32,126 bases of DNA from positions 1-32,126 of the forward strand of contig JASHOR010000003.1 of assembly GCA_030041005.1 (NCBI GenBank). Reading direction: 5' to 3'. Below are positions 25,960 to 30,732 of the stretch, piece by piece; within the stretch, counting starts at the first letter, position 1; each line of letters begins with the position of its first letter. Under the pieces are notes generated by a model that did no database searches, was not told where the DNA came from, and worked only from the letters and a program-made list of their open reading frames with translations. Position numbers and translations under genes: made by a program. The stretch is from Xanthobacteraceae bacterium. GTDB taxonomy: Bacteria > Pseudomonadota > Alphaproteobacteria > Rhizobiales > Xanthobacteraceae.

Positions 25960-26421
25960 ATGAGCCATACATTCTCTCGCCGATCTATCCTGGCGTACGG
26001 CCTTGGCAGCACGGGCGTTGCACTGCTGGCGATGACATCGCCTAGCCAAGCCGCGACTACCACGTTCAAAGCCGACCTGAAATCTTCGAGCGAAGTGCCG
26101 CCGAACAATTCGACCGGCTCGGGCTCGGGCACGGTGACGCTCGATAGCACGACCAACGAAATAACCTGGAACGTCACCTTCTCCGGTCTGACCGGCCCAG
26201 CGACCGCGGTCCATATTCACGGACCGGCACCGGCGGGCAGGAACGCCGGCGTGCTGATCTGGCTGTCGACTAAGGGCAAAACCGCGACCTCTCCAGTCAG
26301 CGGCTCGGCGAAATTCTCGGCCGCAGACACTTCTGACCTGATGAACGGCCAGTGCTACATCAACGTCCACACCGCCGCTAATCCCGGCGGCGAAATTCGC
26401 GGCCAACTCTTGAAGTCATAA
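25960..26421 (+). CDS. Exported CHRD-domain protein
   Basis: 153 residues. FSRRSILAYGLGSTGVALLA is a twin-arginine-like signal, with cleavage likely after SQA near 31. The rest is one CHRD domain: FKADLKSSSEVPPNNSTGSG near 35-54, TWNVTFSGLTGPATAVHIHG near 69-88, and CYINVHTAANPGGEIRGQL at the C-terminus, including the HIHGPA and NPGGEIRGQ motifs. CHRD domains were first seen in chordin; the bacterial versions are periplasmic or secreted and their role is not known. About 180 bp without a recognisable gene precede it. Confidence 0.88.
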   Translation: MSHTFSRRSILAYGLGSTGVALLAMTSPSQAATTTFKADLKSSSEVPPNNSTGSGSGTVTLDSTTNEITWNVTFSGLTGPATAVHIHGPAPAGRNAGVLIWLSTKGKTATSPVSGSAKFSAADTSDLMNGQCYINVHTAANPGGEIRGQLLKS

Positions 26422-26463
26422 TCACGCTGGCTTGTTGCGTCAGTGCCAACCTGATGGTCAGTG

Positions 26464-26500
26464 CCCGCCGGTTTTGCCGCTGCGGCGGCCGGCGGGTTCT
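26464..26500 (+). terminator. Possible terminator after the CHRD gene
   Basis: CCCGCCGG and CCGGCGGG form a perfect 8-bp stem about 45 bp after the stop codon. The run after the stem (TTCT) is short, so intrinsic termination is only possible. Confidence 0.35.
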
Positions 26501-26608
26501 ATGTTCGGCGTGCCCGCGACCCGATGATTGCTCCAGCGGGTTTGAGAACGCGCGCTGTGGTTCACACCAGCCTCTCACACATGCCAAGCCGATGATCCGG
26601 CACGGTGA

Positions 26609-26637
26609 TTGTCTGCACCGTTTGCCAAGATTATACT
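26609..26637 (+). promoter_or_regulatory. Candidate sigma-70 type promoter
   Basis: TTGTCT, 17-bp spacer, TATACT, with the -10 box ending 43 bp before the ATG of the small exported protein at 26681. One of the better promoter matches in the window; not tested. Confidence 0.5.
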
Positions 26638-26680
26638 TTGACCGTAATGCCGTTTGACTCTTGCTGAAAGGGAGAAGGCA

Positions 26681-26941
26681 ATGAGGCGGCGACTGTTATT
26701 GATAAGCTGCACAATCACGATGGTCGTGTTCATCGGCGGGGCGGCGAGCGCACAGATGCAACCGCAAGGCGGCAACCTAGGCGCCTCCATAAATGGCCCG
26801 CGTCTGGCGTTGTGTCGATCTGCGGCAGAACGCTACCGACTGAAAGGGTCGAATTACGACAGTTACCTCAAATATTGCATGGACTCGAATAGTTCAAAGG
26901 CTCCGACGCTGAGAGAGTGGCGGCGGGCTCGGCGAAGGTGA
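26681..26941 (+). CDS. Small exported protein, unknown function
   Basis: 86 residues. MRRRLLLISCTITMVVFIGG with a likely cleavage after ASA (about residue 24) is a Sec signal peptide. The mature ~60 residues have two cysteines (LALCRSAAERYR and YLKYCMDS) that could pair, and a basic C-terminus (LREWRRARRR). GGGAGAAGG lies just before the ATG, and a good promoter match is upstream, so it is a real gene despite its size. It converges on the TIR gene with 52 bp between stops. No family recognised. Confidence 0.75.
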   Translation: MRRRLLLISCTITMVVFIGGAASAQMQPQGGNLGASINGPRLALCRSAAERYRLKGSNYDSYLKYCMDSNSSKAPTLREWRRARRR

Positions 26942-26993
26942 AGGCGGCAAGGCGCGCCGCTTCGCGGCTGTTGGCAGATTCGACCAGGATGCG

Positions 26994-29567
26994 TCACGCT
27001 GGCGGCCTGACGGCGGGTTGACGCGCCAACAGGGCGTCGTCGCTGGCCGAAGGTTGCGGAGCTTCCCGGCACGCGCGAACAAGTTCGGCCCCCTCTCGAG
27101 TCCATCGGTGCGCCGACCCGAGTGCGGCTGCATGCACCCCGAAAGCCGCTTGCGCGAGATCTCTCGCCTCGCCGATGCGATCGGCAGCATAGAGCAGTTT
27201 TGCATAGTTGGTCTGAGCGCGTGCGGTCGACACGTGCTCGCTGCCGAAGCTCCGTGTCAGGATCACGAGCGAGCGCAGATACAGAGCCTCGGCATCGCTC
27301 GCGCGTCCGGTATCGCGCAGCAAGTTCGCAAGATTGTGGAGACAAGTCGCCAGATGCGGATGCTCCGGTCCGAGACTCTGCTCGGCATTGAGCGCCGCCT
27401 CGCGATAGAGCTTTTCTGCCTCGTCCCGGGAGCCGTTCTGCGCCAGCAGCAGCGCCAGATTGTTAAGACGAAATACGACCTGCGGATGGCCGCGTCCGAG
27501 GGATCCTTCCGCCGCTGCAATCGACTCCCGGAACAGCTTTTCGGCCTCCTCAATCTGTCCCTTCATTTGCAAAAGCGTCGCCAGATTGTTGAGCCGAATA
27601 GCAACATCGGGATGGCGGCGTCCCAAGGTTTCCTCGCCCAGGGCGATCGCTTTGCGCAGGAGCTCTTCTGCTTCATCCAAACGTCCCCAATCCTGCAAAA
27701 CGTTGGCCAAGCTGGTCAGAGTCCGGGCATAGCTGGCGTGCAAAATGCCCTCCCGCTCCAGCTCGATGGCCAACGCGTCGCGCAACAGCGATTCAACATC
27801 ATATTTGGGCTCAAGCGCATGCAGCACAAGCGCCAGATTGTTCTCGGCCTTGGCAACTGCCATATCGCGTGGTCCAAACGCCGCCTGTCCCACCTGGACC
27901 GCTTGGCGGAAAAACGTCTTCGCCAGACCAAGCGATGCACGCGCATACAGGAATTCTCCCATTCGATCGCATAGCACGGCGAGATTTTGGTCCCGCAAGT
28001 CGGCAGCTTCGGCATGGATCCGAAATTCGAGAACATGTGTCAGCAATTGGGTGCAGCGCGGCCAATGAAGCGGCTGGTCGTAGGCGCCTTCCGGGATAGC
28101 CGCGGTCAGGCAGCGCGCCGTTTCCGTCAAGACCCCGGCGGTCTTGCCATGAGCTGCAAGCTGCGCTCGCATCGCCGCCTGCACCATTCTGTGCACCGTC
28201 ACCGCCGGTGTGCCGTCGTCCAATATGCGGTGCTCGATTAGCGAGACCGCAGCTAATGCCATGAGCGCATCACTGCGCTCCTCCTCACCGAGAAGAGTTC
28301 CAGTGACCAAATCGAGCGGTATATTTTCTGGCGCAAGGAACGCGAAGGCTCCAAGCAGAGTCTCGGCCCGGTCAGTTTCGGTCGCCGCCTTTTCGATGGC
28401 CATATCGAAGGTCCGCGCGACGCTCCTCGGATATCCGCGCGGCGGGCGCGTGATGCGCGCATCCACCTTTTTGCGGTAATCGTCGAAGCTCATGCCCGGA
28501 CCCGCAAGCCGACAATATGCACCGGCATGATCGAGTGCGAGCGGCAGGCAGCCGAGTGCGCCGGCGAGGCGGATCGCACCCGCCTGGTCGGTACGGGCTG
28601 CCCGCGCTTGCAGGAATTGGGCAGCGGCGTCCTCGCTCAAAACGTCAAGCTTCATTTCAGCGGCCCGTCCGGTCCAGTCGGTCCACTGTGTCGTCATCAG
28701 TATCCGCGCCCCGAGCGACGGCAGCAGATCACGCACCGTCTCGGGCGTTTCGACATTGTCGTAGACGAGGAGAAGCGGCGTGGTGAAACCGGAAAGTCGC
28801 GCCAAGCCGGCTTTGGCGGCCATTTCCTGCTCGGAGATATTTATCAAGCGAGGATCGAGTCTGGCAGCCAGCGCCGCCAGGCTCGAGATCAAACTCGCGC
28901 GTTGCTCAGCGGGCGCCCACCACACGCCGGAATATTCACTCACGTAGCGGTGGGCATATTCGGCAACCAAGGCGGATTTGCCGGCCCCGCCGAGACCGTG
29001 AACGGCGACGTGTGTGGTCGCCGCTTGATCATCCGCGTTATCGAGCAGCCGATGAATTTCCGAGAGATGCTCGTCGCGGCCCATGAAAATAGCATCGCGC
29101 GGCGGAACGTTCTCGAACAGCCGTTGTCGCCGCGGCTGCGCCGTCGAGCGCCCTTCGACCGCGGCCAGAATTCGCGCTTTCCGCTCGCCCGGATCGGTGA
29201 TGCCGACAAGGTCGGCGTACACGCGGCTCGCCAAAATTCCTTCGAGTTCGCAATCGTCCAGGCGCAGCACGATCAATCGGCGTTCGGCGACCGCCCGGTT
29301 TGCGGCGGCCAGAAAATTGGTAACCTCCATCATCGTGAATTCCGAGGCGGTGTAATCTCTGGTGAGAAGCACGATCAAGTGCCGGCAGCTCATCAGTGCG
29401 CGATGCATTTCGGCAATAAAATCGGCGCTGTAGGGAATATCGTAGTCCTGAACTACAACTGTGTATCCTGCACCCTTGACGATTTCGGCCACTTCCTGTG
29501 CGACCGCAGCCGCCCTGCCGCGGCGGCTGACGAAATAATCGAACTCTCCGTTGGCAAGGTCGCGCAT
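26994..29567 (-). CDS. TIR - NB-ARC - TPR protein (NLR-like STAND ATPase, candidate defence sensor)
   Basis: 857 residues. Residues 8-135 form a TIR domain: FDYFVSRRGRAAAV at the start, a BB-loop-like DYDIPYSADF at 41-50, and a Glu (E81 in FTMMEVTNF) where TIR NADases keep their catalytic Glu. An NB-ARC/STAND ATPase follows: P-loop GLGGAGKS at 191-198, Walker B LLLVYDN at 265-271, ILMTTQ at 289-294, GCLPLAL at 339-345, and a winged-helix HRMVQ at 459-463. From about 545 to 820 lie kinesin-light-chain-type TPRs of ~42 residues (LNNLA / EAEKLFRES / HP pattern). This is the plan of an immune receptor with an NAD-cleaving effector, an oligomerising switch and a ligand-sensing superhelix. Bacterial TIR-STAND proteins are known in phage defence and signalling; its trigger here is unknown. 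The gene stands alone with a weak ribosome binding site. Confidence 0.9.
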   Translation of the reverse strand: MRDLANGEFDYFVSRRGRAAAVAQEVAEIVKGAGYTVVVQDYDIPYSADFIAEMHRALMSCRHLIVLLTRDYTASEFTMMEVTNFLAAANRAVAERRLIVLRLDDCELEGILASRVYADLVGITDPGERKARILAAVEGRSTAQPRRQRLFENVPPRDAIFMGRDEHLSEIHRLLDNADDQAATTHVAVHGLGGAGKSALVAEYAHRYVSEYSGVWWAPAEQRASLISSLAALAARLDPRLINISEQEMAAKAGLARLSGFTTPLLLVYDNVETPETVRDLLPSLGARILMTTQWTDWTGRAAEMKLDVLSEDAAAQFLQARAARTDQAGAIRLAGALGCLPLALDHAGAYCRLAGPGMSFDDYRKKVDARITRPPRGYPRSVARTFDMAIEKAATETDRAETLLGAFAFLAPENIPLDLVTGTLLGEEERSDALMALAAVSLIEHRILDDGTPAVTVHRMVQAAMRAQLAAHGKTAGVLTETARCLTAAIPEGAYDQPLHWPRCTQLLTHVLEFRIHAEAADLRDQNLAVLCDRMGEFLYARASLGLAKTFFRQAVQVGQAAFGPRDMAVAKAENNLALVLHALEPKYDVESLLRDALAIELEREGILHASYARTLTSLANVLQDWGRLDEAEELLRKAIALGEETLGRRHPDVAIRLNNLATLLQMKGQIEEAEKLFRESIAAAEGSLGRGHPQVVFRLNNLALLLAQNGSRDEAEKLYREAALNAEQSLGPEHPHLATCLHNLANLLRDTGRASDAEALYLRSLVILTRSFGSEHVSTARAQTNYAKLLYAADRIGEARDLAQAAFGVHAAALGSAHRWTREGAELVRACREAPQPSASDDALLARQPAVRPPA

Positions 29568-29616
29568 GAGCTATGTGGCTCGGGAGTGCGGATTACTCCT
29601 CAACTGTGCTCCGCCT

Positions 29617-29694
29617 CTAGTGTGGCGGTTCAGAAGTCCGCATCATTCCTGCCGCAACCTCGTCATGCGGAGTTCTGAACCAAAGCCACACGAG
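29617..29694. repeat. MITE-like palindromic element A upstream of the TIR gene
   Basis: CTAGTGTGGCGGTTCAGAAG (from 29617) reads in reverse complement from about 29665 to 29694 as ATGCGGAGTTCTGAACC, then AAAGCCACACGAG: arms of about 25 bp with few mismatches around a ~20-bp loop. I recall similar intergenic sequences in Bradyrhizobium genomes but could not check copy number. No gene is present. Confidence 0.75.
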
Positions 29695-29708
29695 ATCAAT
29701 TAAGTTGC

Positions 29709-29781
29709 TAGTGTCCTTCGATTCCGAAGGACGCAAATGAGGGTGCCGCATAATGATGCGAACTTCGGAATCGGGACACCC
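29709..29781. repeat. MITE-like palindromic element B next to element A
   Basis: GCTAGTGTCCTTCGATTCCG (from 29709) pairs with CTTCGGAATCGGGACACC (to about 29780): arms of about 22 bp with a 3-nt bulge and a ~22-bp loop. Like element A it opens with CTAGTGT, but the arm sequence differs. It lies between the aldolase and TIR genes. Confidence 0.75.
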
Positions 29782-29817
29782 GATGATACGCCATTATCGT
29801 CTATGTGGCTCCGCGCG

Positions 29818-30732
29818 TCAGGCCGCGGCCGTCGCTGCCAGGCGTGGCGCCAGCACCGTACTTTTCAGATACGCAGCCAGCGCCGCCCGATCATCGCCGG
29901 ATAGCGGCGCGTAGGGCGGATATGGATCGCCCGCCGCAATGCCAATGAGATTCATGGCGGCCTTCATTGTCGGAGCAAGACCATGGTGCATCCACTTGCT
30001 CGGAAATAACGCGAATTGCGCCTGCAACTGCGCGGCGCGTTCGAACTCGTTGGCGACAAAGGCCTCGACAATGAAACGGGCGATTTCGGCCGCCGGCGGC
30101 GGCATCGTGGCGCCCGAACCACCGAGCTGGATGCTCGCCAGCAACATTTGCATCGTGGTGAAATATGCAGCGTGCCCGGCACGATCGATCTCGACGATCA
30201 GTCGCGACACGCGGGCGAGATCGCGCGAACTTTCCTTGATGAACTTCACGCGCGGCAGTTTTGCGATCGCGATCGTATCCGCGATCGAGACCTCTGCACC
30301 GGGCCCCGGATTGAGATAAAGAGTGAGCGGCAGGCTCACTTCGCGCGCGATACTCTCGAAGTAACCGAGCAGGTCTCGCTGGGTGGGGGCGCCGGCAAAA
30401 GGACGAAGCGGAGCCAAAAGCTGCAGCGCGCCAGCCCCGAGCCTCTCCGCCTCGTGCGCCAACTCGATCGCCGTGCGGAACGACGGGTGGCTAATACCCA
30501 CCATGACCGGAATGCGGCCATCGACGAACTCGATCGTCGAACGAATCAATCGCTTGCGCGCCTCGAAACTCAGGTAGGTGTATTCCTGGGTCTCGACGCC
30601 AGCCGCGACCACCATGGCGGCTGCGCAATCGCGCACCACGTAGTCGATCTGTTGGCGCAATTTCTTCTCGTCGACTGCGAGATCGGCGGTGAACGGCGTC
30701 AACGGCGCGACGATCAATTGCGGCTGGCGCAT
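29818..30732 (-). CDS. DapA/NanA-superfamily class I aldolase (dihydrodipicolinate synthase-like)
   Basis: 304 residues with a (beta/alpha)8 fold. Landmarks are VAPLTPF near 8-14, the Schiff-base lysine in VKFIKESS (K166), and the active-site Tyr in LTLYLNPGPG (Y139). True DapA has a GTTGE loop that binds pyruvate; here the corresponding region reads AAGVETQEY. True DapA also has YNVPxR where this has YLNPGP. It therefore probably acts on another 2-oxo-acid-type substrate, not in lysine synthesis. GGAGAG stands before the ATG at 30732. It is on the same strand as tgt (about 140 bp apart) and upstream of the TIR gene, separated from it by the two palindromes. Confidence 0.88.
   Translation of the reverse strand: MRQPQLIVAPLTPFTADLAVDEKKLRQQIDYVVRDCAAAMVVAAGVETQEYTYLSFEARKRLIRSTIEFVDGRIPVMVGISHPSFRTAIELAHEAERLGAGALQLLAPLRPFAGAPTQRDLLGYFESIAREVSLPLTLYLNPGPGAEVSIADTIAIAKLPRVKFIKESSRDLARVSRLIVEIDRAGHAAYFTTMQMLLASIQLGGSGATMPPPAAEIARFIVEAFVANEFERAAQLQAQFALFPSKWMHHGLAPTMKAAMNLIGIAAGDPYPPYAPLSGDDRAALAAYLKSTVLAPRLAATAAA

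What the first reader, a model, noticed from the sequence alone, without database searches (positions are those of the whole stretch)
26994..29567. Stand-alone TIR-NB-ARC-TPR protein with plant-NLR-like architecture
One polypeptide carries a TIR domain with the putative catalytic Glu retained (E81), a complete STAND ATPase (P-loop, Walker B, GxPLAL, HRMVQ) and six or so kinesin-light-chain-type TPRs. The order matches an NAD-depleting immune receptor in which the TPRs would sense an invader. The TIR start (FDYFVSRRGRAAAV) differs from the common FISY-type and may mark a distinct alphaproteobacterial subfamily. No partner gene is obvious, so it may work as a single-gene system.
Basis: partly seen in the sequence, partly recalled or inferred. 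Interest (0 to 1): 0.78.

Follow-up and report, generated by a model that had tools for sequence, protein, structure and literature searches.

The report
Bacterial NLR-like TIR-STAND-TPR receptor gene
A bacterium carries one extra gene, built like a plant immune receptor, that probably senses an invader and then destroys the cell's NAD+; proteins of this layout are already known, so this is a well-supported new example rather than a new kind.

Summary
Window 26994-29567 (minus strand) encodes an intact 857-aa protein: TIR_2, NB-ARC/AAA_16 STAND ATPase, a DUF7779-like arm, kinesin-light-chain-type TPRs. E81, K197, D270, LPL341-343 and H459 are invariant in 7 of 7 aligned proteins, window included; E81 in 16 of 16 TIRs aligned.

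The gene is accessory: in three congeners the flanking CHRD and dapA-like genes are adjacent; here about 3.36 kb lies between. Homologues are sparse among relatives and occur on plasmids.

It is not new in kind. A single-gene TIR-STAND-TPR "TIR-NLR" already protects E. coli from phages (PMC9122126); TIR-AP-ATPase-TPR proteins are described (PMC7159879). NCBIfam calls it FxsT (368.6 bits, cut-off 300), but the FxSxx maturase FxsB was not found in the genome, so that name probably over-annotates.

Less expected is output swapping: the closest ATPase cores (about 50%) carry a SARP-type winged helix instead of TIR, and one Methylobacterium plasmid has TIR and DUF4062-like versions of an 84%-identical body. 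NADase and anti-phage activity are untested.

The parts
26994..29567 (-). 857-aa TIR - STAND (NB-ARC) ATPase - TPR protein
   Evidence: ORF list; Pfam; NCBIfam NF040586 368.6 bits over cut-off 300; homologues
29199..29534 (-). TIR domain (residues 12-123), with catalytic-type E81 at 29325-29327 and aromatic F77 four residues before it
   Evidence: PF13676 E 5e-15; genome scan places it at 29199-29534; alignment with PDB TIRs
28587..29087 (-). STAND/NB-ARC ATPase (residues 161-327): P-loop K197, Walker B D270
   Evidence: PF13191 and PF00931; invariant in 7 of 7 aligned proteins, window included
28152..28376 (-). arm region (DUF7779-like, residues 398-472) with VHRMVQ ending at 463 (likeness to the NLR MHD motif is my reading)
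   Evidence: PF25000 24.4 bits, below its cut-off of 27; H459 invariant
27120..27989 (-). kinesin-light-chain-type TPR array (residues 527-816), putative sensor
   Evidence: TPR_12/TPR_10; phmmer to kinesin light chain 1 E 2e-31; AF2 model helix pairs, 10-residue mean pLDDT mostly 76-94; Foldseek top hits KLC TPR
26452..29812 (.). accessory insert of about 3.36 kb between the CHRD gene (25960-26421, +) and the dapA-like gene (29818-30732, -); absent at the same place in three congeners
   Evidence: tblastn and blastn against L036, L037, L038
29617..29779 (.). copy of a 163-bp palindromic, MITE-like repeat about 50 bp upstream of the start codon; at least 43 near-full copies in this genome, this one included
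26681..26941 (+). 86-aa secreted-looking ORF (my reading) in the same insert, convergent with the TIR gene; probably not a partner
   Evidence: sequence; no Pfam match; no PADLOC match; found only in this genome among 41 searched

Best explanation
This is a single-gene, horizontally acquired, NLR-like anti-invader receptor. The C-terminal TPRs bind a foreign (most likely phage) molecule. That releases the NB-ARC STAND ATPase to exchange nucleotide and oligomerise. Oligomerisation brings the N-terminal TIRs together, and they cleave NAD+ through E81, causing abortive infection. Shown: the domain order, conserved catalytic-type and ATPase residues, accessory insertion, patchy and partly plasmid-borne relatives, and exchange of the N-terminal module among relatives. 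Inferred: ligand, oligomer, NAD+ cleavage and the phage-defence outcome.
For: Intact domains and invariant motif residues. E81 in 16 of 16 aligned TIRs, with an aromatic residue four before it in 13 of 16; the column aligns with the WTxYE motif of AbTIR chains, and E208 is given as AbTIR's catalytic glutamate (PMC10022894, passages). Insert absent at the site in three congeners. Lower GC3 of the two insert genes (0.681 and 0.651, against 0.734-0.809 in seven other window genes). Sparse distribution: 4 of 61 relatives at 1e-40, and 2 of 297, 1 of 385, 3 of 296 and 3 of 398 at 1e-60, own genome counted each time. Plasmid homologues with recombinases or an integrase, a restriction endonuclease, a NACHT gene, an abortive-infection family gene or a Pycsar effector in the fetched flanks. 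A published system of the same layout, TIR-NLR, is anti-phage in E. coli (PMC9122126, section 8 read). Related bodies carry other outputs, one of them DUF4062-like; DUF4062 is reported as a TIR-like NADase that defends against phage (PMC13174449, passages).
Against: No known defence gene was recognised beside it: ten window ORFs scanned with Pfam look like ordinary metabolism and transport or have no match, and PADLOC matches of ten neighbours are weak or generic ones to the tgt gene (DpdA) and to two genes I read as ABC-transporter ATPases (mad3, AriA and others). PADLOC does not recognise the protein itself (best E 0.0026, over the TPRs). By itself the window TIR finds no solved TIR better than E 0.18; only the family profile does, and its hits include animal receptor and adaptor TIRs (TLR1, TLR2, MyD88) as well as AbTIR. 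The single-sequence TIR model is poor (pLDDT 70.8); its best Foldseek hit is not a TIR (E 0.0046), TIR chains follow, none at E 0.001 or below. The nearest cores carry a transcription-activator module, not TIR, so the ligand need not be a phage. Sequence homology to the tested E. coli TIR-NLR was not examined.
Confidence: 0.6

Rival explanations
1. Signalling variant: the TIR makes a cyclic ADP-ribose-type messenger for an unlinked effector instead of draining NAD+.
For: On the M. indicum plasmid a DUF4231/SLATT gene lies between the TIR and DUF4062-like homologues; SLATT is predicted to be a nucleotide-responsive pore (PMC7159879 passages). The genome has seven TIR_2 loci over the cut-off, the window's included.
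Against: No effector-like gene was recognised next to the window gene. The published look-alike was tested as a single gene (PMC9122126, section 8).
Confidence: 0.2
2. Stress or developmental regulator: an AfsR-like STAND-TPR switch in which the TIR is a scaffold, with no role in defence.
For: The closest cores (50% and 49%) are proteins of a Terrarubrum plasmid with Trans_reg_C (both) and BTAD (one) domains; they form a 97/97 clade with the window protein.
Against: No DNA-binding domain is among the Pfam rows shown for the window protein. E81 and its aromatic partner are retained. Patchy, inserted, partly plasmid-borne genes are unusual for a regulator of core physiology.
Confidence: 0.12
3. 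FxsT: the TIR-ATPase component of an FxSxx-COOH peptide-processing conflict system, as its NCBI name would say.
For: NF040586 equivalog at 368.6 bits against a cut-off of 300. PMC7159879 section 24 (read) puts a TIR-AP-ATPase gene downstream of FxSxx-type systems.
Against: The FxSxx maturase FxsB reaches only 20.2 bits in the genome against a cut-off of 370; 11 of 14 control genomes also ring below the cut-off. The model also passes a BTAD-bearing protein (391 bits), so it marks the ATPase-TPR body rather than the system.
Confidence: 0.05
4. Decaying or unexpressed passenger: an insert brought in by chance, with its promoter broken by the MITE-like repeat 50 bp upstream.
For: The repeat copy lies between the dapA-like gene and the start codon; the only promoter-like site found there, on the minus strand with 9 of 12 matches, is on the far side of the repeat.
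Against: 857 codons without a stop and every named motif intact.
Confidence: 0.05

Closest known systems
TIR-NLR of E. coli P4-like satellites (Rousset et al. 2022, PMC9122126; section 8 and passages read)
   Same: Single gene; N-terminal TIR, central STAND NTPase, C-terminal TPRs; carried on accessory DNA; N-terminal domain replaceable (there by SIR2 or a nuclease). Anti-phage activity was shown there.
   Different: A review's table lists that system under Pfam PF08937, PF13245 and PF13555 (PMC10952713, passages); none is among the 25 of 27 Pfam rows shown for the window protein, which matches PF13676, PF13191 and PF00931. Direct sequence comparison not made.
TIR-AP-ATPase-TPR proteins of FxSxx/VMAP conflict systems, NCBIfam NF040586 FxsT (PMC7159879, section 24 read)
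   Same: Same domain order; the ATPase-TPR body passes the NF040586 cut-off.
   Different: No FxsB found in this genome; no companion genes recognised beside it.
Plant TNP proteins, TIR-NBARC-TPR (PMC9806590, passages; PMC9153377, passages)
   Same: Same order; the maize example needs its P-loop and TIR catalytic site for cell death, as reported there.
   Different: That paper finds the likeness to bacterial proteins lies in the ATPase domain, not in the TIR or TPR; orthology not tested here.
AfsR/SARP-like winged-helix/BTAD-NB-ARC-TPR proteins (Terrarubrum plasmid pair, L015)
   Same: Closest ATPase cores found: 50% and 49% over about 370 residues.
   Different: N-terminal winged helix (both) and BTAD (one) in place of TIR.

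Membership tests
TIR NADase domain | TIR fold by sequence profile | tested here: met
   PF13676 56.5 bits over cut-off 28; a profile of 12 related TIRs hits AbTIR, 7uxr, Roq1, SARM1/tir-1, but also TLR and MyD88 chains; the window TIR alone reaches only E 0.18
TIR NADase domain | catalytic glutamate with aromatic residue four before it | tested here: met
   F77...E81; E in 16 of 16, aromatic in 13 of 16 aligned TIRs; WTxYE in AbTIR chains
TIR NADase domain | TIR fold by structure model | tested here: inconclusive
   single-sequence model pLDDT 70.8, no PDB hit at E<=0.001
TIR NADase domain | NAD+ cleavage | not testable with these tools
   needs an assay
STAND / NB-ARC ATPase | P-loop, Walker B, GLPL-like, MHD-like motifs | tested here: met
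   K197, D270, LPL341-343, H459 invariant in 7 of 7; NB-ARC 24.7 bits over 23.5
Rousset TIR-NLR anti-phage system | one gene with TIR-STAND-TPR order | tested here: met
   description in PMC9122126 section 8
Rousset TIR-NLR anti-phage system | same Pfam domain families (PF08937, PF13245, PF13555 per PMC10952713) | tested here: not met
   none among the best 25 of 27 Pfam rows at E<=1; two weakest rows not displayed
Rousset TIR-NLR anti-phage system | sequence homology to the tested E. coli protein | not tested
   its sequence was not at hand; the P4 record fetched carries gop-beta-cII instead
Rousset TIR-NLR anti-phage system | protects against phage | not testable with these tools
   needs plaque assays
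FxSxx-COOH system FxsT (NF040586) | score over the NCBIfam cut-off | tested here: met
   368.6 against 300
FxSxx-COOH system FxsT (NF040586) | FxsB radical-SAM maturase in the genome | tested here: not met
   best 20.2 bits against cut-off 370; 11 of 14 controls also ring below the cut-off; genome 95% complete
FxSxx-COOH system FxsT (NF040586) | FxSxx precursor peptide and metallopeptidase nearby | not tested
   no dedicated search; none among the ten window ORFs scanned with Pfam
Plant TNP | TIR-NBARC-TPR order | tested here: met
Plant TNP | TIR and TPR orthology with plant TNPs | not tested
   PMC9806590 (passages) reports likeness in the ATPase only

The most novel reading that the evidence does not exclude
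One STAND-TPR chassis is used as an interchangeable sensor-switch: on related bodies the N-terminal output is a TIR NADase, a DUF4062-like NADase, or a SARP-type DNA-binding activator. In that reading NLR-like cell suicide and gene activation are outputs of the same diverging receptor (about 50% identical core for TIR versus winged helix/BTAD; 84% identical body for TIR versus DUF4062-like).
Probability: 0.35. Interest if true: 0.6.

Novelty: new member of a known kind. Interest (0 to 1): 0.36.

Why it matters
The protein is a bacterial counterpart in layout of plant TIR-NLRs, in a family where natural module exchange is visible. The Methylobacterium plasmid pair (TIR and DUF4062-like versions of one 84%-identical body) offers a ready-made natural experiment for asking whether the sensor-ATPase body is independent of the output. 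It also suggests that the database name FxsT (FxSxx-COOH system) is attached to stand-alone immune-like and regulator-like proteins that probably do not belong to that system.

Tried and rejected
Rejected: (1) membership of an FxSxx-COOH system, because FxsB was not found. (2) PADLOC matches of the protein, best E 0.0026 and over the TPRs, and of ten neighbours: seven have none, the tgt gene matches DpdA weakly, and two genes I read as ABC-transporter ATPases match mad3, AriA and other ATPase models. (3) The 86-aa ORF in the insert as a partner: it is convergent, has no Pfam or PADLOC match and is found in no other of the 41 genomes; nor was it found in five stretches that carry homologues. 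(4) A phage home for the window gene: 3 phage records match, all Wolbachia-phage records and over the TPRs in their best places; the TIR alone matches none. (5) Composition as proof of foreign origin: GC is unremarkable and only GC3 is lower.

Led nowhere or weak: the genome-contig scan found three relatives, over the TPR end only. Three search for related loci viral scans for TIR relatives gave none; one DNA-pattern scan matched nothing and the other matched four stretches in which tblastn with the TIR gives nothing better than E 0.14. The single-sequence TIR model is inconclusive, and the full-length model leaves the TIR unmodelled, its alignment having no TIR rows besides the window's. No route was found to the sequence of the E. 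coli TIR-NLR. Papers: in the listings of searches (several capped) and the passages opened I saw no report on this protein or its SRRG subgroup; the library lacks most subscription papers.

Limits to the counts: only 2-3 candidates per genome were scored, so these are lower bounds, and the draws overlap. TIR rows were hand-picked: A2 holds 5 of the 13 plasmid TIR hits plus seven others; A5 adds L054, L067, L068 and L076. The aromatic residue four before E81 is missing in L034, L068 and L076. Of six other congeners with the dapA-like gene, three had no CHRD match in the stretch fetched and say nothing about the insert. In the tree several N-terminal labels ('short', 'TM', 'none', 'split', 'PROT') are my reading. 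The trypsin-like N-terminus of L020 was not confirmed by Pfam. The DUF4062 match is below its cut-off (21.1 against 24.7).
Full report
WHAT IS THERE. The minus-strand ORF 26994-29567 encodes 857 aa from an ATG. Pfam finds TIR_2 at 12-123 (E 5e-15), AAA_16 at 161-251, NB-ARC at 166-327, DUF7779 at 398-472 (below its cut-off) and strong TPR_12/TPR_10/TPR_NPHP3 matches with best stretches from residue 614 on. phmmer against the PDB finds kinesin light chain TPRs (E 2e-31).

ARE THE RESIDUES CONSERVED? In an alignment of seven proteins of the same layout, the window's included, E81, K197, D270, N271, L341-P342-L343 and H459 are invariant. In two alignments of hand-picked TIRs, 16 different rows in all, E81 is invariant and the residue four before it is aromatic in 13. 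A profile of twelve of them finds solved TIRs: receptor and adaptor TIRs (TLR15/TLR2, TLR1, MyD88) as well as 7uxr, AbTIR, Roq1 and SARM1/tir-1 chains, so the profile does not by itself tell enzymes from scaffolds. The window TIR alone reaches no better than E 0.18. The E81 column falls on the glutamate of NWTEYE in 7uxr, and the same motif reads DWTNYE in the AbTIR chains. AbTIR's catalytic residue is given as E208 in PMC10022894 (passages seen); that it is this glutamate of the motif is recalled. So the sequence supports an active TIR, while the structure model does not decide: one sequence only, pLDDT 70.8, no PDB hit at E 0.001 or below. The full-length model used only window and viral-contig proteins. 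It gives confident TPR helix pairs from 527 to 816 and a modelled ATPase, and leaves the TIR unmodelled. Its Foldseek hits are led by KLC TPRs, with a solved STAND-TPR protein, 6mfv, at rank 23.

WHERE IT SITS. The neighbours are tgt, a dapA-like gene, a CHRD-domain gene and a periplasmic binding protein, the last followed by what I read as the rest of a branched-chain-type transporter. In three same-genus genomes (L036, L037, L038) the CHRD gene is followed directly by the dapA-like gene: the stretch without alignable sequence is 171, 104 and 68 bp, against about 3.36 kb (26452-29812) here. Two of the three also keep tgt in the stretch fetched. The other three congeners with the dapA-like gene have no CHRD match in the fetched stretch and are uninformative. 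The insert holds the TIR gene, a small convergent ORF and one copy of a repeat. Both insert genes have lower GC3 (0.681, 0.651) than seven other window genes (0.734-0.809). The same-genus homologue in G005 (about 40% over the whole length) shows none of the flanking CHRD, dapA-like or tgt genes. Among ten neighbours PADLOC sees only weak or generic likenesses.

HOW WIDESPREAD. Matches were found in 4 of 61 relatives at E 1e-40 and in 2 of 297 (order), 1 of 385 (class), 3 of 296 (family) and 3 of 398 (phylum) genomes at 1e-60, own genome counted each time. In the last four searches only two or three candidates per genome were scored, so these are lower bounds, and the draws overlap. In the plasmid collection 139 records match and in 8 one place covers at least 80% of the protein. 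Flanks looked at there include recombinases, an integrase, a restriction endonuclease, a NACHT gene, an abortive-infection family gene, BrnT/BrnA and a Pycsar effector.

OUTPUT SWAPPING. The closest ATPase cores found are two tandem proteins on a Terrarubrum flagellatum plasmid, 50% and 49% over about 370 residues. In place of the TIR they carry a winged-helix Trans_reg_C domain, over its cut-off in both; the BTAD domain is over its cut-off in one. With the window protein they form a 97/97 clade in a 20-row tree. On that tree the label TIR needs seven changes, no fewer than shuffled labels do on average (6.9), and well-supported branches force at least four. On a Methylobacterium indicum plasmid two inverted genes share 84.3% identity over 739 aa (87.9% over 2,181 bp), one with TIR and one with a DUF4062-like N-terminus (21.1 bits, below the 24.7 cut-off), with a DUF4231/SLATT gene between them. 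DUF4062 has been reported as a TIR-like NADase in phage defence (PMC13174449, a preprint, passages seen). A viral-collection contig has an HTH domain on a related body, over its cut-off (L021). Another (L020) looks trypsin-like to me, but Pfam does not confirm it. On a Methylomagnum plasmid TIR, NB-ARC (19.1 bits, below its cut-off) and TPR are three separate ORFs. This pattern, a constant sensor-switch with exchangeable N-terminal output, is what is expected of STAND/NLR receptors and supports reading the TIR as the output.

WHAT IT IS CALLED. NCBIfam NF040586, FxsT, matches at 368.6 bits (cut-off 300). PMC7159879 (section 24 read) describes a separate TIR-AP-ATPase gene downstream of FxSxx-type peptide systems. 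The maturase FxsB is not in this genome above background (20.2 bits against 370), and the same family model scores a BTAD-bearing protein at 391 bits and the same-family TIR protein L032 at 267, under the cut-off. I conclude that the name marks the body and not the system. PADLOC gives nothing useful.

IS IT NEW? No. PMC9122126 (section 8 read, other passages seen) reports a single-gene TIR-STAND-TPR system, TIR-NLR, that protects E. coli against phages. PMC9806590 (passages) notes bacterial TIR-NB-TPR proteins alongside plant TNPs. A review lists TIR-NLR under other Pfam families than those matched here (PMC10952713 passages), so this may be a separate family with the same layout; a direct comparison could not be made. 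In the listings of searches I saw no paper on this protein or its SRRG subgroup.

VERDICT. A well-supported member of a known kind: an accessory, single-gene, NLR-like receptor with a probable TIR NADase output. The chain ligand -> TPR -> ATPase oligomer -> TIR -> NAD+ loss is inferred from architecture and published relatives. I put 0.6 on it, with the messenger-signalling variant next (0.2).

Noticed in passing
29617-29779: A 163-bp palindromic MITE-like repeat: 43 copies over at least 160 bases in this genome (window copy included, the others 94-99% identical to it; 40 of 209 candidates scored), several in abutting or nearly abutting pairs; 7 of the 10 copies read end in TAG after GGGACAC, the window copy not. 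It matches in 10 of 20 same-genus genomes, own counted. Looks recently amplified; its source transposase was not sought.
   Followed up: partly
L016 4484-10811 (Methylobacterium indicum plasmid pVL1_5): Two inverted STAND-TPR genes 84% identical over 739 aa, one with TIR and one with a DUF4062-like N-terminus, flanking a DUF4231/SLATT gene: a natural output-domain swap.
   Followed up: partly
L015 4588-10070 (Terrarubrum flagellatum plasmid): Two tandem winged-helix STAND-TPR proteins (one with BTAD), the closest ATPase cores found to the window protein.
   Followed up: partly
L076 2394-6164 (Methylomagnum ishizawai plasmid): TIR, NB-ARC-like and TPR parts encoded as separate ORFs, the last two overlapping by 8 bases; either a split system or a frameshift.
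   Followed up: no
L063 1761-4711 (Methylobacterium nodulans plasmid): A TIR-only gene directly behind a TPR-protein gene with no NB-ARC match; a possible two-gene arrangement.
   Followed up: no
own genome G000: Seven TIR_2 loci over the cut-off in one genome, the window's included, among them open frames of 984 and 687 codons.
   Followed up: no
26681-26941: An 86-aa secreted-looking ORF in the insert, found in no other of the 41 genomes searched.
   Followed up: partly
L020 4989-7982 (IMG/VR contig): A related STAND-TPR protein whose first ~200 residues look like a trypsin-type protease by eye; Pfam did not confirm.
   Followed up: partly
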